Assembly: GCA_022495995.1 (NCBI GenBank)
Contig: JAFEMH010003631.1
Coordinates: 186,001 to 250,000, forward strand
From: Adenophora triphylla var. japonica
Lineage: Eukaryota > Streptophyta > Magnoliopsida > Asterales > Campanulaceae
Length of the DNA: 64,000 nt
Direction of reading: 5' to 3'
Part shown: in pieces, positions 6,327 to 57,529 of the stretch
How positions within the stretch are numbered: the stretch's first letter is position 1
Layout of the letters: each line of letters opens with the position of its first letter
Position numbers and translations under genes: made by a program
The notes under the pieces: model-generated
Told to the model about the DNA's origin: nothing
Database searches by the model: none
The model's input: the letters and a program-made list of their open reading frames with translations, nothing else

Positions 6327-6336
6327 CTATTTATAG
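6327..6336 (-). promoter_or_regulatory. TATA box of LTR-A (left)
   Basis: The minus strand reads CTATAAATAG followed by AGGG, exactly 20 bp downstream of the palindrome at 6357-6370. The same arrangement recurs in LTR-A right, LTR-B and LTR-C. Confidence 0.75.
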
Positions 6337-6356
6337 TAAAAATTTCGGAGCAAAGA

Positions 6357-6370
6357 GGTCCGTACGGACC
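6357..6370. promoter_or_regulatory. Palindromic site GGTCCGTACGGACC at the LTR-A promoter
   Basis: Perfect 14-bp palindrome. Two further exact copies lie upstream in the LTR at 6464-6477 and 6495-6508, and an imperfect one at 6593-6606. The TATA-proximal copy is the one with fixed spacing. It looks like a binding site for a dimeric DNA-binding protein; this is inference. Confidence 0.7.
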
Positions 6371-6978
6371 TCCTTGGTTATCCAGAATTTTGGATTTCCT
6401 CGATTTGAGGGAATCTGCAATGATGGTGAATATTCTGGAATGATGATGTCCCCCATGCAAGAAGGTCCGTACGGACCAACTCAGCATGCAAAGAGGTCCG
6501 TACGGACCAACCATGCATTTGGGTAATCATTTCTTCCGGATTTGAGGAATATTGTGGACTTTAAGGGGATTCAGTAATTATGAAAGCAAAGAGGTCCGTA
6601 CGGATCAATATTGCTTTCCCAATTTCCTGAAAATTCCCAAAAGGTCCTTTTGTCCCTTTTTATCCCAGGAAGGCTCCTCCCTTGGTTTGGTTGGGGGTTT
6701 GAGAGGGTTTTGAGAGGGTTTTGAGTGCCAGAGGTCTCCGAGACTGCGTTGATGAGTCTGCGGTGTTTCCCGTGTGTTTGAAAGGGGGTGATCCAGATTG
6801 GGGTACTTACGTAAGCCCTCGACGACGTCACTTATGAAAGAAGTGGGGTAGCCGATAAGATAAGGGTCCTAATACTGGATCGCGTCTTTGGGAGAGGAAG
6901 TGACCGTGAGGGTCAATGTGAGGACGTGGTGGTGGTCCTTTTGTGTGACCGTTTAGGTCAATAAGGCTGGACCACGTG

Positions 6979-7470
6979 ATAGGATTCCTACGTATCCCTG
7001 GCGGGAATCAAGCACAGTCGTAGTTCGGGTGTGGGGTGAGTGTTTTGTGAATGCGGGCGTGGTGGTGCCCTGAAGTGTCGTGTGACTGCCGAGGTCAGTG
7101 GTGAGGACGTGGTGGTGTCCTGGGTGACCGCATAGGTCGATGGGAAGGACGTGGTGGTGTCCTAGGTGACCGTATAGGTCGATGGCTGGACCCTGTGATA
7201 GGATTCCTACGTATCCTGGCGGGAATCAAGCACAGTCGTAGTTCGGGTGTGGGGTGAGTGTTTTGTGAATGCGGGCGTGGTGGTGCCACTGAAGTGTCGT
7301 GTGACCGCCGAGGTCGGTGGTGAGGACGTGGTGGTGTCTGGGTGGACCGCGTAGGTCGATGGGAAGGACGTGGTGGTGTCTAGGTGACCGTATAGGTCGA
7401 TGGTGGACCACTGTGATAGGATTCCTACGTATCCCTGGCGGGAATCAAGCACAGTCGTAGTTCGGAGGTC
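6979..7470. repeat. Tandem repeat of about 218 bp, three copies
   Basis: Copies are marked by GGATTCCTACGTATCC at about 6982, 7200 and 7419. Each ends in a block GGGAATCAAGCACAGTCGTA-GTTCG. Between them are shorter repeats pairing GACGTGGTGGTGTCC with a GTGACCG...AGGTCGATGG unit, which continue to about 7610. This is the 3' internal region of element A, between LTR and antisense gene 1. A similar unit occurs in element B at 48770-49300. Confidence 0.8.
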
Positions 7471-7671
7471 GTGAATTTGTGAGTGTATGTGGGCGTGGTG
7501 GTGCCCTGAAGTGTCGTGTGACCGCCGAGGTCAGTGATAAGGACGGGGTGGTGTCCTAAGATGTGGTGACCGCCGAGGTCAATTGTGAGGACGTGGTGGT
7601 GTCCTGGGATGGAAATTTTACGATTTTCCCAATCGGGTGGTTTAAGGCCTTCCGGGCCGGAGATAGTTGTG

Positions 7672-8092
7672 AGGACTTGAATCGTCTTCTGATTGCGGTT
7701 GGTGCCATCTTGGAGGACTTTGAATCGTCTTCTGGCGGCGGTTGGTGCCACGCTGGAGGACTTTGAATCGTCTTCTGGCGGCGGTTGGTGCCACGCTGGA
7801 GGACTTTGCATCGTCTTCTGGCGGCGGTTGGTGCCACGCTGGAGGACTTTGAATCGTCTTCTAGCCGCAGTTGATGTAATGCGCGAGGACTTTGAATCGT
7901 CTTCTAGCCGCAGTTGATGTAATGCGCGAGGACTTTGAATCGTCTTCTAGCCGCAGTTGATGTAATGCGCGAGGACTTTGAATCGTCTTCTAGCCGTAGT
8001 TGATGTAATGCGCGAGGACTTTGAATCGTCTTCTAGCCGCAGTTTGATGTAATGCGCGAGGACTTTGAATCGTCTTCTAGCCGCAGTTGTGG
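7672..8092. repeat. Tandem repeat of about 43-45 bp, about nine copies
   Basis: The unit contains GAGGACTTTGAATCGTCTTC followed by TGGCGGCGGTTGGTGCCACG in the first copies and TAGCCGCAGTTGATGTAATG in the later copies. The switch suggests two expansions. Reading frames through it are translations of the repeat, not genes. Confidence 0.85.
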
Positions 8093-8554
8093 AGGCGTGG
8101 CTGCCTTGTGCTTCGAGAGGCGTAGATGCCTTTGTGTTTTTGCATGTTGTGAAGAAGGTTGGACTTACGATGACTGCCGGTGCTTGTATTGCCGTTGAAG
8201 TGGGCGAGGATGACGGCCGGTGATTGCTTCCCCATTTGGCATTTTGGAGGCGCTTCGTGCCTTGGGACTTGTACTCGGAGGTGTTGGCTCCTTCTTGTGC
8301 TTGTTTTGCCGTTGAGTGGGCAAGGATGATGGTCGGTGCTGGGGATATGCAGTCTTGTATGACTTCCCTTTGACTTGTTGGGGGAGGAGCTCGGGCTTAC
8401 TTTGATGGCCGGTGCTTGCGCTGCCGTTGAAGTGGGCGAGGACCGGTCTTACGTCGACGGCCGGTGCTTGAATTGCTGGGGATGCATGACCCTGTAGGGG
8501 CCCTTTTCTGTTGGGAAGATGACTTCGGACCTCCAGTGGTTGAGTTGTCGTTGA

Positions 8555-8910
8555 GCATTTGGAGGCGTCTTGTGCCTTGATATTCGTGCTGGGAGGTGTT
8601 GGCTCCTTCTTGAATTGCCGTCGGGCGTTTTGGAGGCGTCTCGTGCCTTGGGATTCGTGCTGGGAGGTGTTGGCTCCTTCTCGAATTGCCGTTGAGCGTT
8701 TTGGAGGCGTCTCGTGCCTTGGGATTCGTGCTGGGAGGTGTTGGCTCCTTCTTGAATTGCCGTCGGGCGTTTTGGAGGCGTCTCGTGCCTTGGGATTCGT
8801 GCTGGGAGGTGTTGGCTCCTTCTCGAATTGCCGTTGAGCGTTTTGGAGGCGTCTCGTGCCTTGGGATTCGTGCTGGGAGGTGTTGGCTCCTTCTCGAATT
8901 GCCGTTGAGC
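8555..8910. repeat. Tandem repeat of about 70 bp, five copies
   Basis: The unit contains TTTTGGAGGCGTCTCGTGCC, then TTGGGATTCGTGCTGGGAGG and TGTTGGCTCCTTCT. A diverged copy occurs upstream near 8245-8295. Open frames here are repeat translations. Confidence 0.85.
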
Positions 8911-9140
8911 GGGCGGTGGTTGAATTGCCGTTGGAGTGGGCGAGGACCGGTCTTACGCTGACGGCCGGGGATTGAGTTGCCGTTGAAGTGGGCGAGGACC
9001 GGTCTTACGCTGACGGCCGGTGGTTGAATTGCCGTTGAAGTGGGCGAGGACCGGTCTTACGTTGATGGCCGGGGATTGAGTTGCCGTTGAAGTGGGCGAG
9101 GACCGGTCTTACGCTGACGGCCGGTGGTTGAATTGAAGGG
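8910..9140. repeat. Tandem repeat of about 52 bp with the core CGGTCTTACG...GCCGG
   Basis: Four close copies contain GGGCGAGGACCGGTCTTACG followed by a CTGACGGCCGG-type segment and TTGCCGTTGAAGT. A fifth copy is near 8440 and looser relatives lie from 8160. The array ends about 100 bp before the palindromes upstream of antisense gene 1. The core CGGTCTTACG...GCCGG also forms part of the unrelated-looking array of element C at 52335-54055. Confidence 0.8.
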
Positions 9141-9242
9141 TTAGGGACCATTCTGCACTTGGATTTGCTGGAAAAGGCCTTAGGACAGCCAGGGGCAAAG
9201 ATTATAAGGGCAGGAAAGTAATTTGGCCACCCCTTGCAAAGA

Positions 9243-9286
9243 GGTCCGTACGGACCAACCTGGTTGCAAAGAGGTCCGTACGGACC
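9243..9286. promoter_or_regulatory. Two palindromes GGTCCGTACGGACC upstream of antisense gene 1 (A)
   Basis: Exact 14-bp palindromes at 9243-9256 and 9273-9286. The second ends 157 bp before the gene 1 ATG at 9444. A TATA-like TTTAAAT lies at 9323-9329. They match the palindrome of the LTR promoter of the same element. Confidence 0.7.
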
Positions 9287-9443
9287 AAGTTGGCTTTTCA
9301 CAGTTCCCAGGTTTTGACCGGGTTTAAATTCCGAGGCAACCTCTTCATTTCCCATTTCCAGTGCGTGAACCAGCGAGAGAGAAAGAGAGAAAACTCCATT
9401 TTTGTCCAAAATCTTCCATTTTTCTTAGCTTGAATTGCTTGCA

Positions 9444-12400
9444 ATGGCGGAGGGATCTCGAAGGAGTCGTCGTCAACGCAGTCAGGAAGTGGTTGAGCAG
9501 CGAATGGAGCTCCAAAGAAACTGGATCTCTTTTGTTCCATCTTCAAAGAACCCGGATGTCTTGTATCCGAATCCGGAGGTGCACAATCGTCGCTCTATGA
9601 ACGTCGGGGAGGTAAGAAATCTGTTCCGTTTTGATTCCCTGCTCGAATTCTTGAATGCTAGAACTAGGTTTTAGTTTTTCGCATTTTTGAATTTTTTTTT
9701 TATTATTATTTTATGCCTTTTTGTGAAATTCTTGATGAATTGTTGAAAATGGACATGTAAAAATTGTGGGTATGTGTATTTTGTGCAGAAATGTGTAGAT
9801 TAGCTCTTATTTGTGAAAATAAAGTGCCTATCTAGTGAATTGCATGCTTTGGTGTTTTGTACCTAATGCTATTTATGTATGTACATTGTGAGAAAAATTA
9901 TCGTGTAGTGATAATTTTTGTGAAAAAATGTGACATGTGCCGTGTTTTGTGACGGGTTATATGTGAAAGTGTGTGCCGTGTAGGGACGGATTTTTTTTTT
10001 TTTTTTTAAAAATGTGCTATATAGTGTGTGCCGTGTTTTTGGGTGACGGACTCTGTGGGGAAAATATGTGCAATATGTGCCGTGTTTTTGTGACGGGTTA
10101 TATGTGCCTTTACCGTGTCAGAATGGGCTTTTTGAAAATGTGTCGTGTAGGGTTTAATCCCCCCCCTTTTTTCTTTTGAGAAAATGTGTACAGTGTGTGC
10201 CATGTTTTTGTGACGGACTTCATGGGAAAAATTATATGTATGTGAAAATTATGTGCAATATGTGCCGTGTTTTGTGACGGGTTATATGTGCCTTTATATT
10301 AAGTACTGTGATTGACGTACCTTTGCTGTGTTTACCTGCAGGATGCGGGGCTTATGGCCGGGAAGGCCAAGAGGATGAAGACTCGGGGGTCGCTCGAGGC
10401 TGTTGTTGAGCTGTGGCAGCGGATGCCTGATATTTCCGTGGACGGCAGGCCGAGTCCCCGGAGGCTGGTTTATGCTTCTGGCCTGGGGGTGTTTGTCGAG
10501 AACCTGGCCGGAGTTTCTGATACGAGGAAGAACAAGAGCGTCTTCCTTGGCCTTTCTGAGTACTGGTGGGATACCACCCACACCTTCCATCCGAGCCGGG
10601 AGAGGTGACGGTGACGCCACCGACTTTGCTTTGCGATCACGGCTTTCCTTCAAAGGAGGGCCGGTGCGGTGGAGGGATATGATCTCCGATGTGGTGTTGG
10701 CCGAGCTGTTGGGCTTTGAGCCTCGTCCTCGCGAGGGCTGGGCATGTTGTATAGTGACGTGGAGCGAAGATTACGGCCGGTGTGGGGCCTACATCGGGTA
10801 CCGGCCGGGTGACGGCGGAGCGGTTGGCGCGCTCCTTTTGTGGTATGCACCGTCAGAGACTTTGTTCTCGAACCACGCGACCGCGGCTCCCTTTGCTTTG
10901 TTGGAGAGCTTGATTGACCTGGATAGTGGTCTCGTGATATTGCTTGGGGCGAGCGAGGCTTGGCGAGCTCTACTTCTCCTTGGACCGGTTTAGCCGGGGT
11001 GTGGCGTTCGTGGCTTTGTTTTGACTCGCTTTGGAGGTATGAGTTTATTGCCATTTTGATTTAGCAACTTGTCGTTTCTCCGTTTTCTTTTGCTTGAGCC
11101 CTTCTGTTTTTGTCACGGGTGTGGTTCTATGAGGTTTTCCAGTGCTTCCGTGGGATAGAGATCCGGGGGCAGTACTGCGTATCTGCTATCTTTGGGTGGG
11201 CTCGTACGGCGAGGAAGAGGAGGACCAGCAGAGGGAAGCTCACCATCGCCTACGGGGATGTGCAGGAGCGTCTGGAGAGAGATAGCCGTGAGGGGTTTGT
11301 CTTGTTCCCGTGGACTCGGTATGAGGGGGATGAGTTTGAGGGGGCTCCCGAGGTGACAGCGCGGCGGAAGATGCTGCGGGGCTTGACTTGTGATGTCATG
11401 TATCTGGGAGAGCGGGTCTTCTGGCATCATGGCCCCGGTGTGCTTCCCGTGGCTCCGAGGGACCCTCCCTTTGGGATGCTTGATTCCCGGGACATGGACG
11501 TGCTCGATTTCGAGAGGTACCTTGGCGGTGTCGGCGCCGAGGAGTTCATTTTATATGGAGAGGAGTACGGGGCCTTCGTGAGGAGGAAGGCGAGGACGCC
11601 GCAGTGCGGCGCGGGAGAGAGAGGCGCCCGCGAGGCTCCCGAGAGGTTCCGATGCGGGGACCGGATTTCACGTACGTCCGCGGGGACGGATCGAGGAGGA
11701 GGGTGTGTGCATGCCGTTCGGAGCGAGCTCTGCTGCATACAGTGGACCCCGATAGATCGGTGAGTGTCTTGACTCTTTTCCATCTTGGCATCTTTTACGT
11801 ATTTTTCTCCTTTTGTTGTTGAGTATAAGCTGTATTCTTTGAGCGTTTCCTTGGTGCTTGTTGGTGCGAGTCCCGGGAGAGCCTATGATATCTTGACTCG
11901 CCGTTACGTGGCGATGAGGTCGTTTGCGAAGAAGATGGCGTCGAAGATGTCTTGCCGGTCTTCGCGACGCGTGCCGGCGTACGAGCCTATGCCTTCGAGG
12001 CACTGCGCAGACGTTCCTCCGCCTAGAGCCGAGCCGTGAGCCGCAGCGGAGGGACCTTTGAGGGCGGCATAGCATGGATGCGGGACGTCTTCGGGAGGCT
12101 GCAGGGGCCTTCGAGGAGCAGCGGCCCTTTTATCGGTTCATGCCTCCGCATGGCGCGCGGGGTGAGGGTTCCTCGAGCCTTCTTTCTTTGATCCTTTCGC
12201 CGGATTTGATCCTTCGAGTACTTTTCGTGGGAGCCTCAGGCGGGTGCTCGGTATTCGACGACGAGGATGTGACGGGCGAGTTATTTGGGATGCCCGACTT
12301 TTCTTTGGAGGACCTTGGCGAGGATGATGATGCTTTGAGGAATCTGATTAGTATTCATTTGCTTTCCCTCTTTTCATATCCCTCTTTTTTTTTTGTTTAG
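9444..12400 (+). pseudogene. Antisense gene 1 of element A: plant mobile domain (PMD) protein, decayed
   Basis: Exon 1 (9444-9611) starts ATGGCGGAGGG and ends at GAG|GTAAGA. The intron is about 730 bp. Exon 2 starts after TTTACCTGCAG at 10342, in phase, with RMKTRGSLEAVVELW. The PMD signature WWDTTHTFH is at 10561-10590, followed in a shifted frame by GEVTVTPTDFALRSRLSFKG. A later stretch resembles the PMD motif ELYFSLDRFSRGV (near 10960-11000). A second donor (GGAG|GTATGAG) is at 11037, and a 217-codon ORF (11110-11763: VWFYEVF, LFPWTRYEGDEF, YLGERVFWH) covers the C-terminal half. The end is acidic (EDLGEDDDALR). PMD proteins (MAIN/MAIL1 family) are nuclear silencing-associated proteins also carried by retrotransposons. 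Frameshifts near 10600, 10960 and 11760 make this copy broken unless some are sequencing errors. The homologue in element C keeps the intron positions. Confidence 0.75.
9612..10341 (+). other. Intron 1 of antisense gene 1 (A), with internal short repeats
   Basis: GT-AG bounded and phase 0. From about 9935 to 10290 it carries at least five copies of a degenerate motif TGTGCCGTGTTTTTGTGACG-GGTTATATG. It aligns in position with a 724-bp intron of the homologue in element C (54504-55227), which is rich in poly(T) runs. Confidence 0.6.
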
Positions 12401-12687
12401 CAACAGACATTTATGGGTACCTGTAATAAAACACATGTATTTGCACGGCAAACAGCATTTTATTTTAAGATGTAATGTCATTTTTGTGATTCAGGGATTT
12501 GTCCTAGAAATTGTTGCTATTATTATTTTTTATTTTGTGCATGCCACGTGAGCCGAGAGTGCATTTGTGGGTAGTGTATGTTTGCGGGAATGGCTTAGGC
12601 CGGTGTTTGGGCGGTTTGGAGCAAGGTTTCTTGAGGACGGTGGCTTTTATGCTTGTTTCTTTGGGAAATGGGTTACGTTTGCAAGGA

Positions 12688-12732
12688 GGTCCGTACGGAC
12701 ATACTTAGCATGCAAAGAGGTCCGTACGGACC
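12688..12732. promoter_or_regulatory. Two palindromes upstream of antisense gene 2 (A)
   Basis: GGTCCGTACGGACA at 12688-12701 (one mismatch) and the exact GGTCCGTACGGACC at 12719-12732. The second ends 117 bp before the ATG at 12850. It is followed after 19 bp by CATAAATGC (12752-12760), a TATA-like element at nearly the same spacing as in the LTR promoters. Confidence 0.7.
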
Positions 12733-12849
12733 AACCTTGCTTTGGGAAGGACATAAATGCTTTCCGGTGTGCAGTTCTTCCTCATTTCCCCATTTGCGGC
12801 CATTTTCGAGCTTTCTTCCCCATTTTCTCTAGGAACCTCCATTTTTGCC

Positions 12850-14376
12850 ATGGATTCTTCGTACGTCCCTAGAATTTTGCCGAGGCTTTCGCGGGAGAGG
12901 CAAGCACACTTCCTTGAGCGGTTGAAAACGTGGATGCGGCGCCGTATGAGGCATCGAGAGACGGGCTTTCGAGGTAAGGTTTCGTCTTTGCTCGGTTTGG
13001 TCTTTTAAGGAGTTGGTTCCTGATTGGGATTTGTTGCGGGCCGCCGCGAAGTTACAGGATGTTAGGAGGCACGTGTCTTGTTTCTCCTATAATGAAATGG
13101 TGCCCACTTTTGAGGATTTTCGGGCTTTGATTGGAGGGCCAGGAGGTGGAGGCCATCTCGCTTCCTTTGATTGGTGGTGTTCTTTGTGAGCGTGAAGCTT
13201 GCGGACTTTCTTCGTACTTCGTTGGAAGAAGTGCGGGGCATGATCCTTGATTCGGGTCATATCGACATTTACGAGCTGCCTGAGCGGTTCATGGTTGATG
13301 ATGAGAGTGACGTCTCTTGGGATGTATTTGCCTTGTGCGTGATGGCGACGCTTTTACGGTCGGTTCCCTTGGCATTTGTGATGGCGCTTTGCTAGATGTG
13401 GTAGGGCCTTTGCAGAGCTGGAGAGGATATTGTCCCGTTGGTCTTTGGGGAGACTCTTCATGGTATCGACCGTCGCGGCGAGGGATCGTTTTATGAGAGG
13501 GGAAGCCCCGCTTTGCTCACCTTGTGGCTGCGAGAGAGACTTCGAGGCCATGTCCAGAGGCTCAGACGTCGTTTAGCCCGTGGTCATTTGCTCGGCGACC
13601 TCTTGTGTTGGATATGGATCGATCACTTTGGGAGAGATGGATGGCATAGCTTGGTACGCATCGAGATCCGGCGGTGGGTTCCTTGGCTGGAGGATTGAGA
13701 CCGGGAGGGTCTTGCGGGAAGGGTCCTACGTTGTCGAGTTCCGGGTTTGTCTTGGTCCTCCTTCTATATTCCGTCGCTTGTTTCCGGCGGTTTGGGATGA
13801 AGCGGGAGCCTTTGTTGGGGTGGGATGACCTTGCTCTTTGCGGAGGTAGTTCCTCTTTGTATGGCGGCTTCGGGTGCCTTCTTGTATTTTACGAGGGTAT
13901 GGAAGTATTCCTCTTTCCCTCTGTGGTACTCCTTAGACGTCGGGAGCGTTGTATTGACGACTCGGTATACGGCACAGTATGAGCGGCGTGTTGGGCGATC
14001 CCAAGTGGTCTTGGAGAGCGGGCGTGTAGCGGTGCAGGACCGGTTGCCGTAGTAGCTATTGCCTTAGGAGTGCCGAAGCACAGTCGACCCTTTGGATGTG
14101 ACGGGAGACACTTTGTTTGACTACGAGACTAGAGTTGACCGGCGACGGGGAGAGGTCCTCTTTTACGGACTCGCGGGGAGGAGATCCGAGCCGAAGCACG
14201 GGCGAATGAAGCCACGAGAGCTCTTGGATTGTTTGACTCTACGGGGAGGACCCCGGATCTCGGGCGAGAGACGCGAGTTGGTTCACGTGAAGCGAAAGAA
14301 GACTCGCCGGGGACGAGGGAAGAAAGGAAAGGATGGCGAGGGGACAAGCGCGAGATGGCGCGGAATGACCTCCTAG
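12850..14376 (+). pseudogene. Antisense gene 2 of element A: DUF7745-like protein, decayed
   Basis: It starts MDSSYVPRILPRLSRERQ at 12850. Several frameshifts follow, but homologous blocks to the near-intact copy in element C can be read in order: KELVPDWDLLRAA and a RRHVSCFSYNEMVPTFEDF segment (about 13005-13145), SLEEVRGMILDSGHIDIYEL (13171-13395), a GETLHGIDR block (about 13445), then LTTRYTAQYERRVGRSQVV (13950-14010). It ends with a Lys/Arg-rich tail VKRKKTRRGRGKKGK at about 14287-14331. The N-terminal pattern (WD.LRAAA.....RHV.C....VPT.EDFRALIGGP) matches the eudicot proteins annotated as DUF7745, often retrotransposon-associated. Function is unknown. The basic tail suggests a nuclear or nucleic-acid-binding protein. 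It lies antisense to gag-pol. Confidence 0.7.
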
Positions 14377-15237
14377 GTATCCATTCATTGCATTTGCAAA
14401 CACATTATTAGTTAAATGTATTAAATTTGTCTTTTAGCATGTTGTGAACTTGAGAGTAGACCGTGCTTGAACTCATCAAGAAATGTTGTAACCGTTAGTG
14501 ATTTGTGATTTACTTTTAAAGCTTTATCGAGACGCAAGATCTCTTGTTTGCCTTTTGCATTTGTGCACTTTGTCGGCGTCCATCTTTGGACTTTTACATT
14601 GCATTCGCGGGCCCGAAGCGTCCCAGGCCCACGACGGCAATCTCCTTTCTTTGAGGCTTTGTGCTTGGGCGAGAGGTTGAATGCTCCCGACAAGTCGTTT
14701 CGACGGTCTTTTCGTAGCTTCCTTGCCGCTTGTTGGCGTCGGGCTCTTGACCTCAATTTCGCGGCTTACGCTTGAGCTTCTTTTGTTTTTTTGTGAGCCC
14801 TTGCTCGAGCTCTCTTTTTGTGAGCCCTTGCTCGAGCTCTCTTTTTTTATATATTTTTTTTTGTGAGCCCTTGCTCGAGCTCCTTTTTTTTTTTTTTTTT
14901 TTTTGAAGCGCGTGAGGGCGAAGACAAGCCCAGCTTGGAAGCGAGACATGAGTCGGTCGTTTGATCTTTGAGTGACCCTCGGACGTCCTTTGATGTTGCC
15001 GCCTTCGTTTGACTTGGTCAAGGTGGCTGGCAGGGCGTGTTCTTGAAAAGTGCGTAGCTTGATGGAGGTCTTGATTGACATTCAAACTTTTGACTTTTTG
15101 TGTATTTTTAGACCGGACCAATTAAGGTTGCCTACGTTCCCCGGACTAGAGGGCTCGGGTCTGCGTAGTTCGACACTACATGGAGTGCCAAGAGATGCAG
15201 TTTGTTCTTCTTTAGGCGAAGTATCTGCGAAGTTTGC
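14377..15237. other. Region between antisense gene 2 and integrase (A)
   Basis: No conserved coding is visible. It holds three copies of TGTGAGCCCTTGCTCGAGCT with T-rich spacers at 14793-14885 and a long poly(T) run. At 15131-15172 is a block CCTACGTTCC...CTGCGTAGTTCG, related to the repeated CCTACGTATCC...CGTAGTTCG block near the LTR. It probably holds the convergent 3' ends of the antisense gene 2 transcript and of gag-pol. Confidence 0.5.
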
Positions 15238-16432
15238 TTAGTTATTTGGATTCATGAAGGGATTGCCGTCTAGGTGCATCGGCTTCATGGCGCCTCCGGA
15301 GAAGATCTTTTGAACCACGAAAGGGCCGATCCATGTGGGTTCCCATTTTCCCGGTGGGTTGGTTCGAGTGGGAGGCTTTTCTTTGAGTACAAGGTCACCT
15401 TCCACGATGTCTCGGGATTTGACTTTCTTGTCGAAAGCTCTAGCCATCCTGCTTTGATAGGCTCGGACGTGTTCCATGGCCTTTAGTCGTCGCTCGTCTA
15501 GCGAGCCAATTCGTCATGTCGGCTTGGAGCCATTCAACTTCGTTGATGTCATTTTCCAGCCGGTACTCGGAGTGAGGAATTTCTAGCTCGATGGGAAGGG
15601 CTGCTTCCATCCCGTATGTCGGGGCAAATGGGGTTTCTCCCGTGGGCATTACGGCGATGTGCGGTAGCCCCAAAGTGCAAGGTGCGGCTTCTCGGGCCAA
15701 TCTCGTCCTCGGGTGGTCATTTTTCGGATGATCCGTTCGAGGGTTTTGTTTCTTTGCTTCCACGGCGCCGTTTGTTTGTGGCCGGTAGGGAGAAGATTTG
15801 TGACGTGTGATCTTGAATTCAGCCGGCGATGCAGCCGAATTCCCCTTGAAGTGTGAGCCGTTGTCGATATGACCTCATTTGGGATGCCGTATCGGCATAT
15901 GATGTTTTCCTTGAGGAAATGCGCGACCTTCTTGGAGGTGAGTACCTTGTGGGACTTGGCTTCGACCCATTTGGTGAAGTAGTCGATGGCTACTAAGATG
16001 AACTCGTGGCCAGATTCTTTGCTGGCGGAGCGATTTTCCCGATGACGTCAATTCCCCAGTGGCAAAGGGCGAGGTGTAGTCATGCGGTAGAGATCGTGGG
16101 GCGGTAGATGATTGAGGTTGGAGAATCGTTGGCACTTGTCGCGGCTTCGGACAAAGTGGATGCAATCTGCCTCCATGGAGATCCGGTAGTAGCCCATCCA
16201 CGAGAATGATTTGCATCAGGGCTCTGGCGTTCATGTGGGGACCGCAAGCCCCATTGTGGACTTCATTCATGAACTTGTTTGCTTCTTCTTGGTTGATGCA
16301 GCGTAGGAGTGGCCCATGGTAGCGTTTCTTGTATAGCATGTCCCCGAGGATGACGAAGTGAGAGGTGAGGCGTTTTAGGGCCATGATGCTCTTGGTTTTG
16401 ACCCCTTCTGTGTGTGGGTCTCCCTTGTTCAT
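15238..16432 (-). pseudogene. Integrase of element A, frameshifted
   Basis: Minus-strand segments in order: an N-terminal zinc-binding part (GPHMNARALMQI, near 16230), an out-of-frame core (near 15900-16200, where the plus strand is the complement of DYFTKWVEAK- and GLPNEVISDNG-type motifs), and a C-terminal part (15440-15763 with ETPFAPTYGMEAALPIELEI, and 15238-15477 with KVKSRDIVEGDLVLKEKPP and GPFVVQKIFSGGAM). These are typical of Ty3/gypsy Tat integrases. The catalytic core is broken by at least two frameshifts, so this copy is not expected to be active. Confidence 0.85.
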
Positions 16433-16514
16433 GAAGGTGGTTTCCCCGTTCTTGAGGTATTGGAAGATCTGGTTATACCATGGCTCATTGACGGGCTTAG
16501 GTTACAGTTCGATC

Positions 16515-17403
16515 TCACAACGGTAGGCGGGATTTCCTTTCGTCCAGAGCTTTGAAGGGTTTGATTGCTTTTCCTTCAGGGATCTCCACGAGTGAAGCCA
16601 AGGTGGCTAAGGCGTCTGCAAACCTGTTTCGGTCTCTTGGCAGATAGTGGAAGGTGACCTCTTCGAATTGTGTGATGAGGTCCTCCATGCAGGCATGGTA
16701 TTTTTGCAAGCCCGGGTCTATGGTTTTCCACTTGTTGGAGACTTGGTTGATGATCAAGGCTGAGTCCCCATAAACTTCGAGTTTCTGGACATTCCTCTCG
16801 AGTGCGGCTTGTAGTCCGGCGGCGCGAGCTTCATATTCGGCGGCATTGTTGGTTACCTCGAAATTGAGCTTTATAGCAATTGGGGTGTGCTCGTCCTTGG
16901 GATCCACCAAGAGCATACCGATGCCGTTTCCCTTTTTGTTAGCTGCTCCGTCGAAGAACAGTTGCCATCGATTTTCGCTTTCGATTGTGAAGATTCCCTC
17001 GTCTGGAAATTGTGGTTCGGGACCTCGAGCTTCGTCGGTTGGGAAGTCAGCCAGTTGTTCAGCCATTACCCGTCCCTTGATTGACTTTTGGTTCACGTAC
17101 TTGATGTCAAATTCTGCTAGAAAGAAAGACCACTTGGCGAGCCTCATTGACAGAGATGGTTTGTCGAAGAGGTATTTGACTGGATCCATTTTGGAAACCA
17201 AATGTGCGTGTGTCTGCATGTAGTGCCGTAGTTTTCCGACAACCCATACCGTAGGCTGCGCGAGTTTTCTCGAGGGCGAGTAATTGAGTTATTTGCCTTG
17301 AAACTTTCGGCAGCCAAGTAGATGGCGTTTTCGACCCGTGACTCCTTCTTTTCTTGACAGAGCATGGCTCAGCTGCGGTGTCGGTCACGATTAGGTATAG
17401 CAA
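16515..17403 (-). CDS. RNase H region of element A (second RNase H plus remains of the first)
   Basis: A 234-codon minus ORF (16515-17219) starts with the connection region (PVKYLFDKPSLSMRLAKWS, DIKYVNQKSIKGRVMAEQLADF). It contains an RNase H fold of the archaeal type: FFDGAANKKGNGIGMLLVDP, EYEARAAGLQAAL, YGDSALIINQVSNKW and a final RFADALATLAS. The frameshifted first RNase H lies at about 17107-17420. Two RNase H domains in tandem are characteristic of the Tat lineage. It degrades the RNA strand and processes primers during reverse transcription. Confidence 0.85.
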
Positions 17404-17549
17404 TAGTGGCTTTTCCTCGTGGGGAGGACGAGAGAATCGGAGGACTCACAAGGTATGCTTTTATTTTTCAAAGGCATCTTGGCATTACGAGTTCCACTCG
17501 ACGTCGGCGTTTTTCTTCATCAATTTGAAGATTGGCTCGCACATGGAGG

Positions 17550-23577: not shown

Positions 23578-23597
23578 TAAAAATTTCGGAGCAAAGA

Positions 23598-25998: not shown

Positions 25999-26004
25999 AC
26001 GTCG

Positions 26005-37579: not shown

Positions 37580-37642
<63 letters not shown>

Positions 37643-47228: not shown

Positions 47229-48293
47229 CCTATTGAAATTACCCAGATCCGCCGCGCGGATCGGACATCTCGCGTTGGGGGATTCGCTGCATTTTCGCAG
47301 AGTCGCCACGCCATTTTGATTGTGCCCAAAACATTGAGAAAAGACTTTGTTTTGTTTTGTTTTGTTCTGTGATGAGATTTTGGAGTTCGGAGGTCAGGTT
47401 ACGCCTCGAAAAGAGATAGTTGAGCTCACCCGAGTCCCCTCGTATACACGAGTCTTTCGATACCCTTCTTTCTTTAAATGTTGTGTGTGTGTGTGTTTTA
47501 AAAAATTCATTTTGAGAATGATGTCTACATTGCAAATAATGCTTATAATTAAACAGAAATATTTAAATTAAAGCAGTAAAGTGAGATTCGGAAGGAGGTC
47601 TTACCAATGTTAGTTTGTGTCTATCTTCCGCGGGGGAGTGTGTTTGGTTTGAAAGGGAATAGTGTTTTGGGACGCCGGGGGACGATTAGGACGGATCGGG
47701 AATGATCGGGATTGATCGGAATCGCTTCGGGAGGACTTCAGAGCGCCTCGGGATGGCTCGGGATGGGCCGGTATGGGCCGACAAAGCTTCGGGATGCCTC
47801 GGAATGGCTCTAGATGGATCGATATGGGCCGAAAGAGTTTCAGGATACCTTGGGATGGACCGGTATGGGCTGGCAGAGCTTCAGGATGCCTCGGGATGGC
47901 TCGGGATGCCTCGGGACTGACCAAGATTGCCTAGGGAAGGACCGGGATTCGACCGGAATCGCTTTGGGAGGACTTCGGAGCGCCTCATGAGGGCTTTGGA
48001 GCACCTCGGGAAGGCTCAGGAGGCCTCGGGAAGGACCAGAAGAGGTCGGGATGCCTTGGGATGGCTCGGGATGCCTCGGGACGGACTGGGATTGCCTAGG
48101 GAAGGACTGGGATTTGACCGGAATTGCTTCGGGAGGACTTCAGAGCGCCTCGGGAGGGCTTTGGAGCACCTCAAGAAGGCTCGGGAGGCCTCGAAAAGGA
48201 CCGAAAGAGGTCTGGATGCCTTGGGAGTGTGCCTAAAGGATGGGGGAAGAGAGGAGGGAGTTGAGGTATGAATGAAATGGGAGGGGGAGACCT

Positions 48294-48303
48294 CTATTTA
48301 TAG
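48294..48303 (-). promoter_or_regulatory. TATA box of LTR-B
   Basis: CTATAAATAG on the minus strand, exactly 20 bp downstream of the palindrome at 48324-48337. Confidence 0.75.
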
Positions 48304-48323
48304 GCCCCAAAAAATTGCAAAGT

Positions 48324-48337
48324 GGTCCGTACGGACC
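48324..48337. promoter_or_regulatory. Palindrome GGTCCGTACGGACC at the LTR-B promoter
   Basis: Exact copy of the LTR-A palindrome. Further copies lie at 48432-48445 (TATCCGTACGGACC) and 48464-48477 (exact). Confidence 0.7.
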
Positions 48338-48769
48338 ATTATGTAATTACAATTTTTTGGTTTTCCTGGATTTCAGGGAATATTGTGGAATTTAAAGGGA
48401 TTTTTTCATCATTTTGGCGTGTTGAAGTAAGTATCCGTACGGACCATTCTTACTTTGCAAAGTGGTCCGTACGGACCATTATGTCAACTGGCCATATTTT
48501 GTTATTCCTGCAAAGTCATTGTGTTCCCTTTTATCCCTGAAAGGTCCTCCCTTGGTTTGGATGGTGGTTTTGGACCTTTTGGATGTTACGGGTCTTCGAG
48601 ATCACGTATGCGTGAGTCCTCGGTGTTTCCCGTATGCGTGAATGGAGAGCGGTCCGGATTGGGGTACTTACAAAAGCCCCTCGGCGACATCACTTTTGAA
48701 GTAATTGGGGTCGTCGATAAAGATAAGGGTCCCGATCTGGACCGCTTGTTGGGAGAGAGAAGATGATCG

Positions 48770-49300: not shown

Positions 49301-50794
49301 GAGGTGATTGCTTGGGTCGGTGACTGAGGAATCGTGAGGATGTGGTGGTGTCCTCTGATGGGGATGAAAGTGTTCGTGCCTGTGATGATGTTGCCATTCG
49401 CGGGAAAAATTCGATTTTTGCGTTTCTTTGAAAAACCAAATAAAACCGGAAAACGGAGTCGCCACGCCATTTTAATTTTGAAGGCCAAAACTTTGAAAAA
49501 AGCCCGAGATCAGAGATTTAGGTTCGGAGGTCATGTTACGCGTCGGGAAGGACGTTAGTGTGCACCCGACGCGCCTCGTAAAACGAGTCTTCCAAGCTGA
49601 AAATCATTTGTGTGTGTGTGTGTGTGTGTGTTTTGGCCAAAATAATTCGAAACTGGAAAAAGCAAAAATTGGGATGTCCTTTTAAGACTTTAAACTGATC
49701 CCATGATTTTTTGGAGAATTTTTGGTTTGAGATTTGGTACTCAAAAGACCTTTTGAAGTTGAGAGCCATTTCTGCCAGAATGAAAAAGGCAGTGGACCTT
49801 TGATTTTAAAAGGGATTCAAGGGTCTTAAAACTTCATAATCTGGATAAACTCAGAGAATGAAAGTTGTTCTAGACACCTTAAATGAAGTTTGTGCGAAGG
49901 AATTTTCCATTTTGGAGAAGATTTGAGGGGTCAAAACCTTCTGGAAACCTCAGATATGAGATCTGGATTCTCAGAAGCTGATGAACTAGCCTCTGAAAGA
50001 AAATTTGAAAAGAGGAGTTTTACTCACCCAAAAAATAAGGTAAAAATATTTCTGGAAAGCTCTGGATGTTGGCTACAAAAAGTATTTTGTAGTCAACACC
50101 AAATTCCAAGTTCATCTGTGTCCAAAAATTAAGACCATGGACTGAGGTCTGAGAAAATTGCTACTGGACAGCAACTTCTCAAGAAAGAAAATATGATTTT
50201 AAGGGGGGTTTTGCATCCATGCTTGTCCCCATTTCCCTAGGTTTTGGTTAGTGATCACTAGACATTTTAGTGGTGAATCAACTATACCAAACCATCCTTG
50301 GGGTACATTAGGACTAAGCATTTCATTTGCTTGGGAAGGGGAATTTTATCCTTTGAAATCAAGATTTTATGCTTGAAAATGGTTTTTAGGGTTTTGAAAA
50401 TGAGTTTTCTTTGCAAGAAAGTAAGAAAGCTTAAAAATAATTTTGATCTTTGTAGAAGATCATCCATGGAGATGGTCTTCCATGGTGATCTTCTTAGATC
50501 TAGAGAAAGAAGATGAAAGAACTACATTTTGTAGTTTGAAGATGCATGCATGGTTGAGATTTAGGGTTAGGAGGAGGAGGGTTTACCAATCTTCCTTGTG
50601 TTCTTGAGTGTTTGGCTTGAGTGTATGAGTGTTTAGGGCTTTAATATGAGAGTGAGTGGATGAGTATGAGTTGGGAAAGATTGGAGAGAAAAGGGTGACA
50701 ATTCTTGAAGAATTCTCACTGTTTTCTCTCTATATTTCGCCAGAGGTTCGGTGCAAAATGTGTTCTTCCTTTTTATTTTTGTGACTGGAGGGCT

Positions 50795-50804
50795 CAATTT
50801 ATAG
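50795..50804 (-). promoter_or_regulatory. TATA box of LTR-C
   Basis: CTATAAATTG on the minus strand, exactly 20 bp downstream of the palindrome at 50825-50838, as in LTR-A and LTR-B. Confidence 0.7.
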
Positions 50805-50824
50805 CCCTCCTGAAAATGCAAAGG

Positions 50825-50838
50825 TATCCGCGCGGATA
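50825..50838. promoter_or_regulatory. Palindrome TATCCGCGCGGATA at the LTR-C promoter
   Basis: Perfect 14-bp palindrome at the position held by GGTCCGTACGGACC in LTR-A and LTR-B. They share TCCGNNCGGA. Related palindromes precede both antisense genes of element C. Confidence 0.7.
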
Positions 50839-51243
50839 GGTCCAGGCAGCGTGCACTGTTCATTAAATGCAGCTTCAGCTTTGGACAAGAAGAATATTTC
50901 TTTTTGAAATTCAAATTAGGCAGCCAGTTTATGTTTCCAGCATTGCTATATTTGGTTTTCTTCTTTTGTTTTGCTTTTTGAGATTCTTTTTAAGGTTTAA
51001 CCTTAAATAACAATGCCCATTTTACCCTCACTTTGTTAGAAAAGTTAGGATTGTTAGGAATTGTTAGAAATGTTATAACTTTCGTTAATTTTCTAACGAA
51101 AATTCTAACAAGCTCAAATTGGAGCACTTACAGTAGCCCCTCGGCGACGGCGCTTTCGAAGGAAGCGGGGTCGTCGATAAGAGTAAGGCTCCATATTTGG
51201 CAGGATGATCGAGTGATCGGGTGGCTGAACCTAGCGATAGGCT

Positions 51244-54055: not shown

Positions 54056-54166
54056 TTCTTGACAAGGGGTGACTTTGGTTAACTTTGGTTAACTCGTCGA
54101 GTTGGGGGCGAATTGCGAGTCCCGAAATTTTAAGGGGCAAAAGGGTCATTTTGACCCTTGCAATCC

Positions 54167-54180
54167 TATCCGCGCGGATA
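54167..54180. promoter_or_regulatory. Palindrome TATCCGCGCGGATA upstream of antisense gene 1 (C)
   Basis: Identical to the LTR-C palindrome; the symmetry extends to 18 bp (54165-54182). It ends 156 bp before the ATG at 54337. A TATA-like TATTAATTA follows after 18 bp (54199-54207). In element A the corresponding distance to the gene 1 ATG is 157 bp. Confidence 0.7.
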
Positions 54181-54336
54181 GGGTTTGAAAACCAGGGGTA
54201 TTAATTAGGGCCAACGCCCTTTTCTTCTTCCCCATTCAGTTTTGCAGAATTACGAGAGAGAGAGAAAATTCTGTAAATCCGCCATTTTTGGCCAAAAAGC
54301 TTCAAAAATCTTCCGATTTCTTCGATTTTTTGAGCA

Positions 54337-57171
54337 ATGGAACACGGGGAAGGCGCTTTTCAAGGCCAAGGACGTGGCCCGGTAGCGGAGAGGCGGTGGA
54401 GCTCGTCCGGATGAGGAGGCATTACAATCTTTCGCAATCGGTTGCGGAGGAGCATTACCCCGATGCTTGGCAACATTGGGCTTCGGATCCGCATCTCCGA
54501 ACGGTATACTTTGAAACCCTTTGATCCCTTTGTTGATTTCTTGTTTGAAAATTTTGGGTGATTTTTGAATTTTTTTTTTTTTGAAAATTCGAACGATTGA
54601 TGTTCTTGGCTTTGAATCTTGATTTTGATGCTTTGCATGTTGTAATGAGTATATGAGTAACCCAAAATGTGCATTTTGCTTGGGAAAAAGAATTGGCATT
54701 TTTGCCACATTTTTTTTTTTTCAATTCGAAAATTACATGTGAAAATTCGAAGAATTGTGATTTTTTTTTTTTTGAAATTGAATATTGCATGTTCTTGATG
54801 ATGATTTTTTTTTGAAATTGAATTTTGATATTGATGAATGATGATGCAATGCATGCATTTTGTTTGGAAAGAATGGGCATTTTGCCAATATGAGATGTAT
54901 GTATGTTTAGGATTTTTTTGAAAAGTGGGACGGATTTTTCCTCCCGTTGCATGTAAGATGGATGATATGCATGTATGCATTTTTTTTTGTTGAAAATGGG
55001 ACGGAGTTTTTACTTCCGTAGGAATGCATCTTTTTTTTTTTTTTGATGAATGCATTGGGACTTGCTGAAAATTGTTTTCTTTCATGCGAGAAAAATGGGG
55101 CTATGCTCATTGTATGCTGTTATCTTTGTCGAATTTTTTTTTTTTAATGTAAATGCACATGCAATCTTTTTGACATTTTCTCTTTTTTTTTTTTTTTACG
55201 GGCGGAAACCGTTTTGTGACGGAGCAGTGAACAAGATGAAGACTCGAGGATCGGTGGAGTCTACGTGATTGACTTGTGGGATCGGCTTTCGGATGCGGGC
55301 CGAGGAGCTTTGCCGAGTCCGAGACAGATTGTTGTCGAGACGGGGCTCGGGAGTTCGTCGAGTGCTTGAGGGGCTGGTCAAGTTCCCTAAGAGCAAGGGC
55401 TTGATGTTTGCTGCGGCGCGGCCGGTGGGGACGCGACCCACACCTTCCACTTCTTACGGGCGAGGCTACGGTTACTCCTCGACTACGCTGCGATCACGGG
55501 CTGTCCTTTAATGGGACGCGGATTGAGTGGCGGGATGGCTACGGCGATGCCGATCTGCAGCTCTTACGGGATTTTCCCCTATTCCCAAAAAGGGGATGGG
55601 GATGGAGTATGCCGTGGTCTACGGCAAGATTGTGGAGACCATTGCGAGCTATGAGGTGGGGAGGAGAGGATAGGCGCCGATCAGATTGCCGGGGCCTTCT
55701 TGTGGTTTGCCTTTTCGAGCACCCTCTTTGGGCATGCCGAGGACGGCGGTCTTTGCCTTCTTTGAGGTCCTTGGAGGACATGGAGACGGCCGGAGATGTC
55801 TCGTGGGGAGAGGCCGGGCCGGCAGAGCTTTATTTTGCTCTCGATAGGTACGGCAGGAAGGCTGTGAGCTCCTTCTTGCTTCGAGTTTGCCCTGGAGGTA
55901 TAAGCTCTCTTTTTGCTTTCCCTCTCTTCTTTTGAGCACACACTTTTATTTGCCTGGATTGATTGGATTTTTACCTTTCGCGGTATGGGCGTTGGAGTTT
56001 TTCCACGTCACGGTGTGGCGGCGGCCGGCGGAGTACGTCGGGCGTATCCGGCCATGCGGTCTTGGTCCAAGCATGCCGGGAGAAGATAAGCTCCGGGGCG
56101 TACGACTCTCGTGTACGCGGATTGCCTTCCTTTGACGGAGGCCGAGACGGATGAGGGGATGATATTCTTCCCACAGGATCGCTTTGAGGTAGCGCGGTGA
56201 AGGGCGCCGAGATACGGGCCGGTGCGGCGGAGGATTTTGAGGGTCCGACTGCGATGCCTATTATCCAGGAGAGAGGGTGACGCGCGCCGGCATGGCGTGA
56301 ACTCGCCTTTGAGGACACCGGTGGAGCCTCCCGCCGATATGATGCACCCGAGCGATCGGTCCGTGACTGGGATGATTACCGAGCGGTCGGCACTTCTCGG
56401 ACTTCGTGGCGATTGAGCCGTATGCGACATTCGTCTTGAGGAGGCCGAGGATGCCTCGAGGTTACGGATAGGGAGGGGCTTGGGATCCCGCGGTACCCTC
56501 GGACGGATTTTTCCTATATCCGGGATGGGGTCCGATTGAGGGTGCAGATCCCTCAGCCCGAGCGACTTCCACGAGCTTTCCGGCCTCGTCCGGGTATGAA
56601 GGTATGGCTTTTTTTTTTTTTTTACGCTTCTTTCTTTTGTTTCATCACCTCCTTTTTTTTTTTTTTTTTGACGCTTTTGCTTTTGTGCAGTTTTCGGAGG
56701 TGGTCGTCGAGAAGCTGACGAAGCAAGTGATCGGGGCCAAGAGATTCATCAGGAGGATGGTCGCTTGCGGGGCTCCTCGAGCTAGAGCGAGGTGACCACG
56801 GCGGCGCCGTCGGACGAGAGGCTTCCCTATTCGCTCGTAGACTTCTTCGGAGACTCCTCTGTCTCCTCTCCTTGATCATCGCGCGATCGCCTTCGGATCA
56901 CGTCATTCTAGGGGATCCACACGGGCAGGGACACGTTTGGCAGCATGGCGGGTCGTCTTCGTACGTGCAGGAGTCCGACGCCTTCACCTTCGGATACGAC
57001 TTTTTCGCAGATCTCGGCTTGCCCTATCAGAGCGTGCCGGTTGGTCCTGATGAGCCTCTTTCTGGAGACGAGGACGATTCTGAGCCCGAGATTTTCAGGG
57101 CTCCTGAGGAGGCGGGCCCGAGTCGCAAGAGGGGCCGGGGGGAGACATCGGGCGCTGGAGACTCCGATTGA
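54337..57171 (+). pseudogene. Antisense gene 1 of element C: plant mobile domain (PMD) protein, frameshifted
   Basis: Exon 1 starts at ATG 54337 (MEHGEGAFQGQGRGP), has a frameshift, continues RHYNLSQSVAEEHYPDAWQH and ends at donor 54504. A 724-bp intron ends GGAGCAG at 55227. Exon 2 starts NKMKTRGSVES, matching element A. The PMD signature DATHTFHFL is near 55430-55455, followed by GEATVT and LSFNGTRIEWRDG, then AELYFALDRYGRK near 55830. A donor GGAG|GTATAAG at 55898 is at the same place as in A. Later parts (VYADCLP, FFPQDRFE, about 56100-56190) are broken. The C-terminus (56872-57171) is clean: FGYDFFADLGLPYQSVPVGP, an acidic stretch, then RKRGRGETSGAGDSD-stop. PMD proteins are nuclear; the role in the element is unknown. 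Confidence 0.72.
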
Positions 57172-57511
57172 TTTTTTTTTTTTTGAGATTTGAGATTGAG
57201 ACTTAGATTTGTACAGCTTATGCACATTTTTTTTTTATGTAATAATTTAGGATTTTATTTTATGAATGCTTGTTTTTTTTTTATGCACACTCTTTTTTTT
57301 TTGGAATGTAATAGTTTAGGATTTTATTTTATGAATGCAATGCAATATGAATGCAGTGTTGCATGAGCCTTGGTTTTTTTTTTGCAAGGGTGTTTGGTAT
57401 ATGGACTGGTTTGGGGAGGGTTTTTGCACAAGTTTCGAGCAACCGGGACGGAATATTCCTTTTTTGGCGTAGCAGCTTGGACTGTTGCAGATTTTTTTTT
57501 GGGAAAGCAAT

Positions 57512-57529
57512 CCCATCCGCGCGGATGGG
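57512..57529. promoter_or_regulatory. Palindrome CCCATCCGCGCGGATGGG upstream of antisense gene 2 (C)
   Basis: Perfect 18-bp palindrome with the same TCCGCGCGGA core as the other sites in element C. It ends 122 bp before the ATG at 57652 (117 bp in element A). A weak TATA-like CTTTAATTT follows after about 20 bp. Confidence 0.7.

What the first reader, a model, noticed from the sequence alone, without database searches (positions are those of the whole stretch)
6327..57529. Shared palindromic operator-like sites at three promoters of each retrotransposon, with fixed spacing
Seen directly: GGTCCGTACGGACC occurs in LTR-A (6357, 6464, 6495 and the right copies), LTR-B (48324, 48464), twice upstream of antisense gene 1 of A (9243, 9273) and upstream of antisense gene 2 of A (12688 with one mismatch, 12719 exact). 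In element C the corresponding sites are TATCCGCGCGGATA (50825 LTR, 54167 gene 1) and CCCATCCGCGCGGATGGG (57512, gene 2). All share TCCGNNCGGA. In all four LTRs the gap from palindrome to TATA box is exactly 20 bp. Palindrome-to-ATG distance is 157 (A) versus 156 bp (C) for gene 1, and 117 versus 122 bp for gene 2. Sequence has changed between elements while symmetry, number of promoters and spacing are kept, as expected for an operator co-evolving with its own dimeric DNA-binding protein. By analogy, the VANC proteins of VANDAL transposons bind short motifs of their own family and counter silencing. Here the regulator could be one of the two antisense gene products.
Basis: partly seen in the sequence, partly recalled or inferred. 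Interest (0 to 1): 0.9.

Follow-up and report, generated by a model that had tools for sequence, protein, structure and literature searches.

The report
Retrotransposon operators matched to own regulator
Large plant jumping genes carry one short mirror-image DNA word in front of their predicted main start site and in front of two backward-facing genes, and different families spell the middle of the word differently while staying largely true to their own spelling, so it is likely the docking site of a control protein that the element itself encodes, which would let the element switch itself on as a unit.

Summary
TCCGNNCGGA occurs 18 times in the window against 0.69 expected, all in LTR U3 regions or just upstream of two antisense genes. 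A motif search blind to the palindrome found only pieces of this site shared by seven promoters. In the host genome (2.48 Gb) GGTCCGTACGGACC occurs 47,555 times, its reversed control 0 times. Copies picked by their gene-2 protein, not by the site, give the key result. The gene-2 centre is TA in family A (19 of 20), CG in family C (20 of 20) and mainly GC in family D (14 of 30 exact, 1 AC, 15 altered). None of the 54 intact cores among 70 promoters read has another family's centre. In family C, CG also holds at gene 1 (15 of 15) and LTR (17 of 17) where a site was found. Gene 1 encodes a plant mobile domain (PMD) protein, gene 2 a DUF7745 protein. Best reading: a family-specific operator for an element-encoded PMD/DUF7745 regulator that activates or un-silences its own element, as VANC does for VANDAL transposons. 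Binding, direction and partner are untested. Site pairs about 31 bp apart are new; the one-sided GCAA flank is common in A, not in C.

The parts
5406..24042 (-). Element A, a complete Tat-type Ty3 LTR retrotransposon with 5-bp target duplication CCTGT; gag-pol on the minus strand
   Evidence: LTR pair 95.4% identical; TSD and TG..CA ends; RT, RNase H domains, G-patch
5406..6812 (-). Element A 3' LTR (left copy)
22648..24042 (-). Element A 5' LTR (right copy)
6357..6370 (.). Site GGTCCGTACGGACC, TATA-proximal, 21 bases before TATAAA
6464..6477 (.). Site GGTCCGTACGGACC, half of a 31-bp pair in LTR-A
6495..6508 (.). Site GGTCCGTACGGACC, other half of the 31-bp pair
6593..6606 (.).
23598..23611 (.). 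Site, right LTR, 21 bases before TATAAA
23704..23717 (.). Site, right LTR, 31-bp pair
23735..23748 (.). Site, right LTR, 31-bp pair
23835..23848 (.).
9243..9256 (.). Site upstream of A gene 1 (pair, spacing 30)
9273..9286 (.). Site upstream of A gene 1, 157 bases before ATG 9444
9444..12400 (+). A antisense gene 1, PMD (PF10536) protein, probably several exons, frames broken; end approximate
   Evidence: weak piece hit, read-through with X at joints E 2e-7 but below the Pfam cut-off, relatives with open frames above it
12688..12701 (.). Site GGTCCGTACGGACA upstream of A gene 2 (pair, spacing 31)
   Evidence: same form in relatives
12719..12732 (.). Site upstream of A gene 2, 117 bases before ATG 12850
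12850..14373 (+). A antisense gene 2, DUF7745-type protein, frames broken; end approximate
   Evidence: homologous to C gene 2; family identity from relatives with open frames
47700..48667 (-). Element B 3' LTR, part (far end not set)
48324..48337 (.). Site in LTR-B, 21 bases before TATAAA
48432..48445 (.).
48464..48477 (.). Site in LTR-B, 32 bp from the former
49400..51132 (-). Element C 3' LTR (far end a guess)
50825..50838 (.). Site TATCCGCGCGGATA in LTR-C, 21 bases before TATAAA
54167..54180 (.). Site TATCCGCGCGGATA upstream of C gene 1, 156 bases before ATG 54337
54337..57171 (+). C antisense gene 1, PMD-type protein, probably several exons, frames broken; end approximate
   Evidence: homology to A gene 1; relatives with open frames
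57512..57529 (.). Site CCCATCCGCGCGGATGGG upstream of C gene 2, 122 bases before ATG 57652
57652..59144 (+). C antisense gene 2, DUF7745-type protein with a basic C-terminus, frame broken near 58300; end approximate
   Evidence: weak DUF7745 hits of the window pieces, below cut-off; relatives

Best explanation
Elements of these families carry the same palindromic site at the predicted LTR promoter and upstream of both antisense genes, and the site is likely a family-specific operator bound by the element's own antisense-encoded PMD and/or DUF7745 protein, which would activate or un-silence all three promoters together. Shown: the sites, their spacing, their enrichment, the family-specific core, and the identity of the two genes. 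Inferred: promoter activity, DNA binding by these proteins, recognition as a dimer (from the symmetry) with side-by-side binding at pairs about three helical turns apart, and a positive rather than negative effect. In this model the antisense genes are regulators that feed back on themselves and on the LTR, and a family escapes cross-control by related families when its protein and its core change together: TA in A, CG in C, mainly GC in D.
For: 18 sites against 0.69 expected. Blind search over seven promoters: only three shared patterns, all parts of one site; 0 shared in each of 200 control draws. Genome: 47,555 GGTCCGTACGGACC, reversed control 0; TCCGNNCGGA 123,386 against 15,817; TCCGGCCGGA 9,821 against 1,310. 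Copies chosen by gene-2 homology: C gene-2 promoters 20 of 20 with TCCGCGCGGA at -136 to -139, 3 of 3 further loci; 54 of 55 sites in the C sample have CG. In C the 10-base core is the longest invariant run at gene 2 (n=20), gene 1 (n=15) and LTR (n=17) while neighbouring bases vary; at the last two, 8 of the 10 letters were fixed by how copies were picked. A gene-2 promoters: TA in 19 of 20, pairs in 16, 15 of these 31 apart; one A element picked by protein has TA at 7 of 7 sites over all three promoters. LTR gap to TATAAA 21 in 15 of 17 C copies, in the window's A, B and C and in one more A-type LTR. A LTR pair: 88 changed columns of 1,416, 0 of 56 in the 14-mers. Gene 1 is PMD, E 1e-22 at best, gene 2 DUF7745, E 3e-11 at best. 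Arabidopsis MAIN and MAIL1, PMD proteins, interact, and 25 of 26 genes down in all the mutants carry a promoter motif (PMC7156037, passages and section 17 read).
Against: No binding, expression or methylation data. Family D is looser: 14 of 30 gene-2 promoters keep the exact core, one has AC, 15 are altered, and several altered ones read AGTCC[TC]AC(G)GACT, which with one base added would look TA- or CA-centred rather than GC; D sites with TC and GT centres occur at LTR and gene 1. The LTR gap is 22 in one A copy, 22 and 19 in two C copies, 17 or 18 in D. Concordance over all three promoters is well sampled only in C. With the site masked, flanks align between A and C beyond chance only at gene 1 (0 of 300 shuffles); LTR-B with LTR-C is marginal (10 of 300), LTR-A with LTR-C and the gene-2 pair are not (127 and 78 of 300), so a change in place is shown for one promoter only. 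Part of the A sites shares longer flanks between LTR and gene 2, as if copied (sequences). CpG retention in the A LTR pair is not significant (0 of 8 against 8 of 91, p 1). In Arabidopsis loss of MAIN or MAIL1 also raises transposon expression (PMC7156037, PMC9899485), which does not fit a purely anti-silencing role. No DNA-binding domain was recognised; the structure model failed (pLDDT 34) and PDB shows no relative.
Confidence: 0.58

Rival explanations
1. A host transcription factor binds the site, and the element uses it at all three promoters for joint expression.
For: Site just upstream of TATA, as for many activator sites. GTAC cores are known for SBP factors and TCCG-type halves for LBD factors (recalled, no call).
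Against: One host factor would hardly keep CG in 54 of 55 C sites and TA in 35 of 35 A gene-2 sites within one nucleus: if it took every centre the centre would drift, and if it took one, families would not differ. Several host factors, one per family, would be needed.
Confidence: 0.17
2. Same element-encoded operator, but the protein represses: an autorepressor that limits copy number or protects the host.
For: Palindromic operators at a regulator's own promoter are the classic autorepressor plan (recalled). Loss of MAIN or MAIL1 raises transposon expression in Arabidopsis (PMC7156037, PMC9899485, passages).
Against: Sites sit upstream of TATA and not on it. An element gains little from repressing itself, VANC activates its motif-bearing targets, and the motif tied to MAIN/MAIL1 is at genes that fall, not rise, in the mutants.
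Confidence: 0.13
3. The sites are homogenised by copying of a promoter module between positions or by recent spread, without a trans factor that reads them.
For: LTR-A and A gene 2 share about 30 near-identical bases around one site, and A gene 1 has a 30-bp tandem unit (sequences). A change in place is shown for gene 1 only.
Against: In C the flanks differ between promoters and between copies while the 10-base core stays. Beyond the masked site, promoters of one element do not align with each other (LTR-A with A1 and A2, A1 with A2, LTR-C with C1 and C2: 58 to 260 of 300 shuffles reach the score; C1 with C2: 33 of 300).
Confidence: 0.08
4. The site acts in RNA, as a dimerisation, packaging or siRNA-related element of the genomic transcript.
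For: Palindromes serve retroviral RNA dimers (recalled); the 17 GCAA-flanked window sites all lie on one strand.
Against: Near-fixed distance to TATA in U3 and to two antisense ATGs.
Confidence: 0.04

Closest known systems
VANC proteins and motifs of VANDAL DNA transposons (PMC5735166, passages read; PMC10398659, abstract read)
   Same: Element-encoded protein, short motif in the element's own non-coding DNA, motif and protein change together between related families, tandem motif copies
   Different: VANDAL is a DNA transposon and its 9-base motif is arrayed in one orientation at high density; here an LTR retrotransposon, a palindrome, mostly one or two sites at the antisense genes and one to four in the LTR, and PMD/DUF7745 proteins. 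VANC binding and demethylation are measured; here nothing is
MAIN/MAIL1/PP7L and the DOWN motif of Arabidopsis (PMC7156037, passages and section 17 read; PMC9899485, passages read)
   Same: A pair of PMD proteins and a promoter motif whose genes need them
   Different: Host genes, motif CATGCAGTTT in the MORC1 promoter, direct binding unproven there; no exact copy of that motif in the window
Antisense genes of Grande, RIRE2 and Retand (PMC7264820, parts 1 and 2 of 3 read; PMC11963269, abstract and passages read)
   Same: Antisense gene between pol and 3' LTR, own promoter in Grande, proposed regulatory role, DNA binding predicted for TRP28
   Different: Those encode gene23 or TRP28; no shared operator was described in what I read. 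Here PMD and DUF7745
PMD domains in Ty3 elements (PMC9289625, passages read)
   Same: PMD was the most frequent non-canonical domain found there in plant Gypsy elements
   Different: No cis motif or function in the passages read

Membership tests
Tat-type Ty3 LTR retrotransposon | Two RNase H domains after RT | tested here: met
   RVT_1 in one frame; RT_RNaseH tail and RVT_3 in the next, element A; no tree was built
Tat-type Ty3 LTR retrotransposon | Long region between pol and 3' LTR with antisense genes | tested here: met
   about 6813 to 15257 in A
Retand lineage | Antisense TRP28 (PF04195) domain | tested here: not met
   No TRP28 hit for the window pieces or the relatives scanned
PMD-class protein (gene 1) | PF10536 above its cut-off of 34.9 bits | tested here: met
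   3 of 5 gene-1 pieces of relatives at 59.6 to 80.9 bits, one at 17.4, one without a hit; the window's own pieces stay below the cut-off
PMD-class protein (gene 2) | PF10536 above its cut-off | tested here: inconclusive
   3 relatives in G000 hit DUF7745 above its cut-off but PMD only at 12.9 to 16.1 bits; one relative from another source, P0003, hits PMD at 36.7
VANDAL/VANC system | DNA transposon encoding VANC | tested here: not met
   LTRs, RT, and integrase in C
VANDAL/VANC system (works like) | Protein-induced loss of silencing at motif-bearing copies | not testable with these tools
   no methylation or expression data
MAIN/MAIL1 DOWN-motif module | DOWN motif (CATGCAGTTT) in the target promoters | tested here: not met
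   0 exact in the window; 8 with one mismatch, 3.5 expected, 4 of 100 shuffles reach 8; one of the 8 lies some 50 bases past the C gene-1 site

The most novel reading that the evidence does not exclude
Plant Tat-type retrotransposons carry a self-contained regulon: two antisense genes for PMD-class proteins form a heteromeric, sequence-specific anti-silencing factor that reads a family-specific palindromic code at the LTR and at both regulator genes. The domesticated MAIN/MAIL1 motif system of plant hosts would descend from such a retrotransposon regulon, and the code would insulate families sharing one genome, as VANC does for DNA transposons.
Probability: 0.34. Interest if true: 0.92.

Novelty: new variant of a known kind. 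Interest (0 to 1): 0.82.

Why it matters
The role of antisense genes in plant Ty3 elements was open in the review and survey read (PMC7264820, PMC11963269). A family-specific operator at three promoters makes it directly testable and points to a regulon. If true it would be another case of motif-specific self-regulation by a transposon, now in an LTR retrotransposon. It could also give a source for the host PMD proteins that act on promoters and transposons. With tens of thousands of sites in one genome, it could supply ready-made operators to host genes.

Tried and rejected
Structure of the gene-2 relative P0003 with six rows: mean pLDDT 33.8, not used for any fold search. PDB by sequence: one hit at E 0.26, dismissed. 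Gene-1 homologues in the 5.8-billion set: none. Viral contigs by protein and by pattern: nothing. CpG retention and lack of change in the A LTR pair as a test of constraint: pointing the right way, weak. A fixed asymmetric site GCAA-N5-TCCG-NN-CGGA looked general in the window (17 of 18) but fell to 18 of 55 in the C sample, so I dropped it as a defining part. TATA-like words at the antisense genes (18 to 36 bases away) are too loose to count as evidence. Relation to the DOWN motif: rejected. Flank test: faulty, because masked letters matched each other and every pair scored high; redone with the result told above, which took a little off the confidence (0.60 to 0.58, copying rival 0.06 to 0.08, novel case 0.35 to 0.34). 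Genome counts of TCCGTACGGA, TCCGCGCGGA and TCCGATCGGA could not be had: machine busy. In the first 100 listed places, all on contig C1, the centres are TA 33, CG 26, GC 21, AT 1, others 19.

Recalled and not seen in any call: a preprint on PMD protein and DNA motif modules in Arabidopsis. My searches did not show it, and preprint servers are not held; if it covers transposons the novelty is lower.

Full report
WHAT IS THERE. The window holds plant DNA with Ty3-type LTR retrotransposons whose gag-pol reads on the minus strand. Element A is complete, 5406 to 24042, with a 5-bp target duplication and LTRs 95.4% identical. It has RT, a second RNase H and a G-patch, the layout of the Tat lineages. 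Of B the window shows a 3' LTR with a short stub; C runs from its 3' LTR through both antisense genes into pol and off the window. C may sit inside B (a guess). Between pol and the 3' LTR two genes read the other way, on the plus strand, in A and in C.

THE SITES. TCCGNNCGGA occurs 18 times; shuffled sequence gives 0.69 on average and at most 3. Twelve are in A, three in B, three in C. Ranked by arm, TCCG is sixth among 4+2+4 palindromes; above it are TATA, ATAT, TTTT, GGGT and CCCT, presumably from low-complexity and tandem-repeat stretches. All 18 lie in LTR U3 or just upstream of an antisense ATG. The distance from the 14-mer to TATAAA is 21 in all four LTRs.

A BLIND TEST. I took 250 bases upstream of TATA (three LTRs) or ATG (four genes) and listed every pair of 4-mers with a gap of 0 to 12. 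Three patterns were shared by all seven: TCCG-N2-CGGA, GCAA-N11-CGGA and CGGA-N5-TTGC, all parts of one site. In 200 draws of seven random windows none was shared.

IN THE GENOME. GGTCCGTACGGACC is there 47,555 times, its reversed form 0 times. TCCGNNCGGA: 123,386 against 15,817. TCCGGCCGGA: 9,821 against 1,310. On contig C1 the 63 places listed fall into 24 clusters; 10 are sets of four spaced 99-100, 30-31 and 106-107, in either order. What share of all sites lies inside these elements was not measured.

THE KEY TEST: COPIES CHOSEN BY PROTEIN. I searched the genome with gene-2 protein pieces, which says nothing about the site, and read upstream. Family C: 20 of the 150 listed copies, picked by me across the list, 86 to 95% identical; 20 of 20 have TCCGCGCGGA 136 to 139 bases before the ATG, as do 3 of 3 further loci. 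Gene 1 has it in 15 of 20 and an LTR with TATA in 17 of 20; all have CG. Of 55 sites in these 200 kb, 54 are CG and one TG. The LTR gap is 21 in 15 of 17, 22 and 19 in the others. In alignments the 10-base core is the longest invariant run at each of the three promoters, while the bases beside it vary. For gene 2 this is unconditional; for gene 1 and LTR the copies were aligned because they have TCCGNNCGGA, so only the centre is free there.

Family A: 20 of 150 listed copies; 19 of 20 have TCCGTACGGA, 16 as a pair (15 spaced 31, one 32), 114 to 119 bases from an ATG in 15 of these 16; one copy (L094) has two damaged sites. One of these elements, read over 6.5 kb, has TA at 7 of 7 sites over all three promoters, with an LTR gap of 22.

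Family D was found because one search showed TCCGGCCGGA in sets with the same layout. Its gene 2 reads like gene 2 of C and finds gene-2-like copies; its gene-1 start resembles gene 1 of A by eye only; ATG gaps are 128 (one copy) and 151 (two copies), LTR gaps 17 and 18. Of 30 of 150 gene-2 copies, 14 have the exact GC core, one AC, and 15 have altered letters at the same place. Several altered ones read AGTCC[TC]AC(G)GACT, closer to a TA or CA centre with a base missing than to GC. Exact cores go with long frames: 12 of 16 with an open frame of 400 or more, 2 of 14 of the rest, Fisher p 0.0013; the second batch of ten was picked for long frames. D is looser at other promoters too: the element at C62 has GC (gene 2), GT (gene 1), GC and TC (LTR).

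So among 70 gene-2 promoters from three families, 54 have an intact TCCGNNCGGA and none of these carries another family's centre. One nucleus, three cores: this is what a trans factor specific to the family predicts, and the element's own genes are the nearest candidates. A change of the core in place can be shown by flanks only at gene 1, where A and C align beyond the masked site (0 of 300 shuffles); LTR-B with LTR-C is marginal, LTR-A with LTR-C and the gene-2 promoters do not align. An earlier version of this test was faulty.

THE GENES. Of five gene-1 pieces from relatives, three match the plant mobile domain PF10536 at E 4e-16 to 1e-22, one weakly, one not; three gene-2 frames match DUF7745 at E 3e-10 to 3e-11, with weak PMD similarity. 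One gene-2 relative from another source matches both. The window's own copies are broken and score below the cut-offs. Gene 2 ends in a basic stretch that looks like a nuclear signal (inference). No known DNA-binding domain was found.

HOW IT LIKELY WORKS. Inference: one or both proteins bind the palindrome as a dimer, alone or as pairs about three turns apart, upstream of TATA, and raise or protect transcription of the element and of their own genes. The direction is taken from precedents. VANC21 binds YAGTATTAY in non-coding VANDAL21 DNA and causes methylation loss (PMC5735166, passages). MAIN and MAIL1 interact, and 25 of 26 genes down in all the mutants carry a promoter motif (PMC7156037); but the same mutants also de-repress transposons. 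MAIL1 is said to be highly related to proteins of Gypsy-type elements (PMC6419827, passage).

AGAINST IT. No assay. Family D is ragged. Some A sites look copied from one promoter to another. Concordance at all three promoters is well sampled only in C.

IN PRINT? A search for the site letters found 9 papers, all by TCCGTACGGA alone and none on retrotransposons by title. Searches on PMD, antisense ORFs, VANC and palindromes showed no such operator in the listings or in the passages read. The library lacks most subscription papers and preprints.

Noticed in passing
25700-30100: Long array of units of 14 and 21 bp, apparently of a 7-bp motif of the CCCTATA type and partly inverted, which may be a telomere-like satellite.
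   Followed up: no
6900-9135, 48755-49240, 51214-54057: Tandem repeats between the 3' LTR and gene 1 in A, B and C; A and B share part of theirs.
   Followed up: no
19104-20237 (-): A G-patch domain in the protease part of the polyprotein of A.
   Followed up: no
L046-L057: D-family copies with broken frames share recurrent altered letters at CTGCAG-like and CCGG-like places, as if methylated bases had been misread in the assembly; the altered cores may partly be such artefacts (by eye).
   Followed up: no
L030: A family-C copy with two further CG-centre sites 31 bp apart upstream and a TG-centre site 31 bp from the gene-2 site, the pair layout that is otherwise typical of family A.
   Followed up: partly
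G000:C1:1222374-1222475: LTR-like pair of TCCGTCCGGA sites 92 bp apart with a GC-centre site 2.3 kb away, a possible D subfamily with another LTR core.
   Followed up: no
25232-25696, 33203-33649, 37574-38041: Open frames that look like hAT transposase pieces (recalled likeness, not scanned).
   Followed up: no
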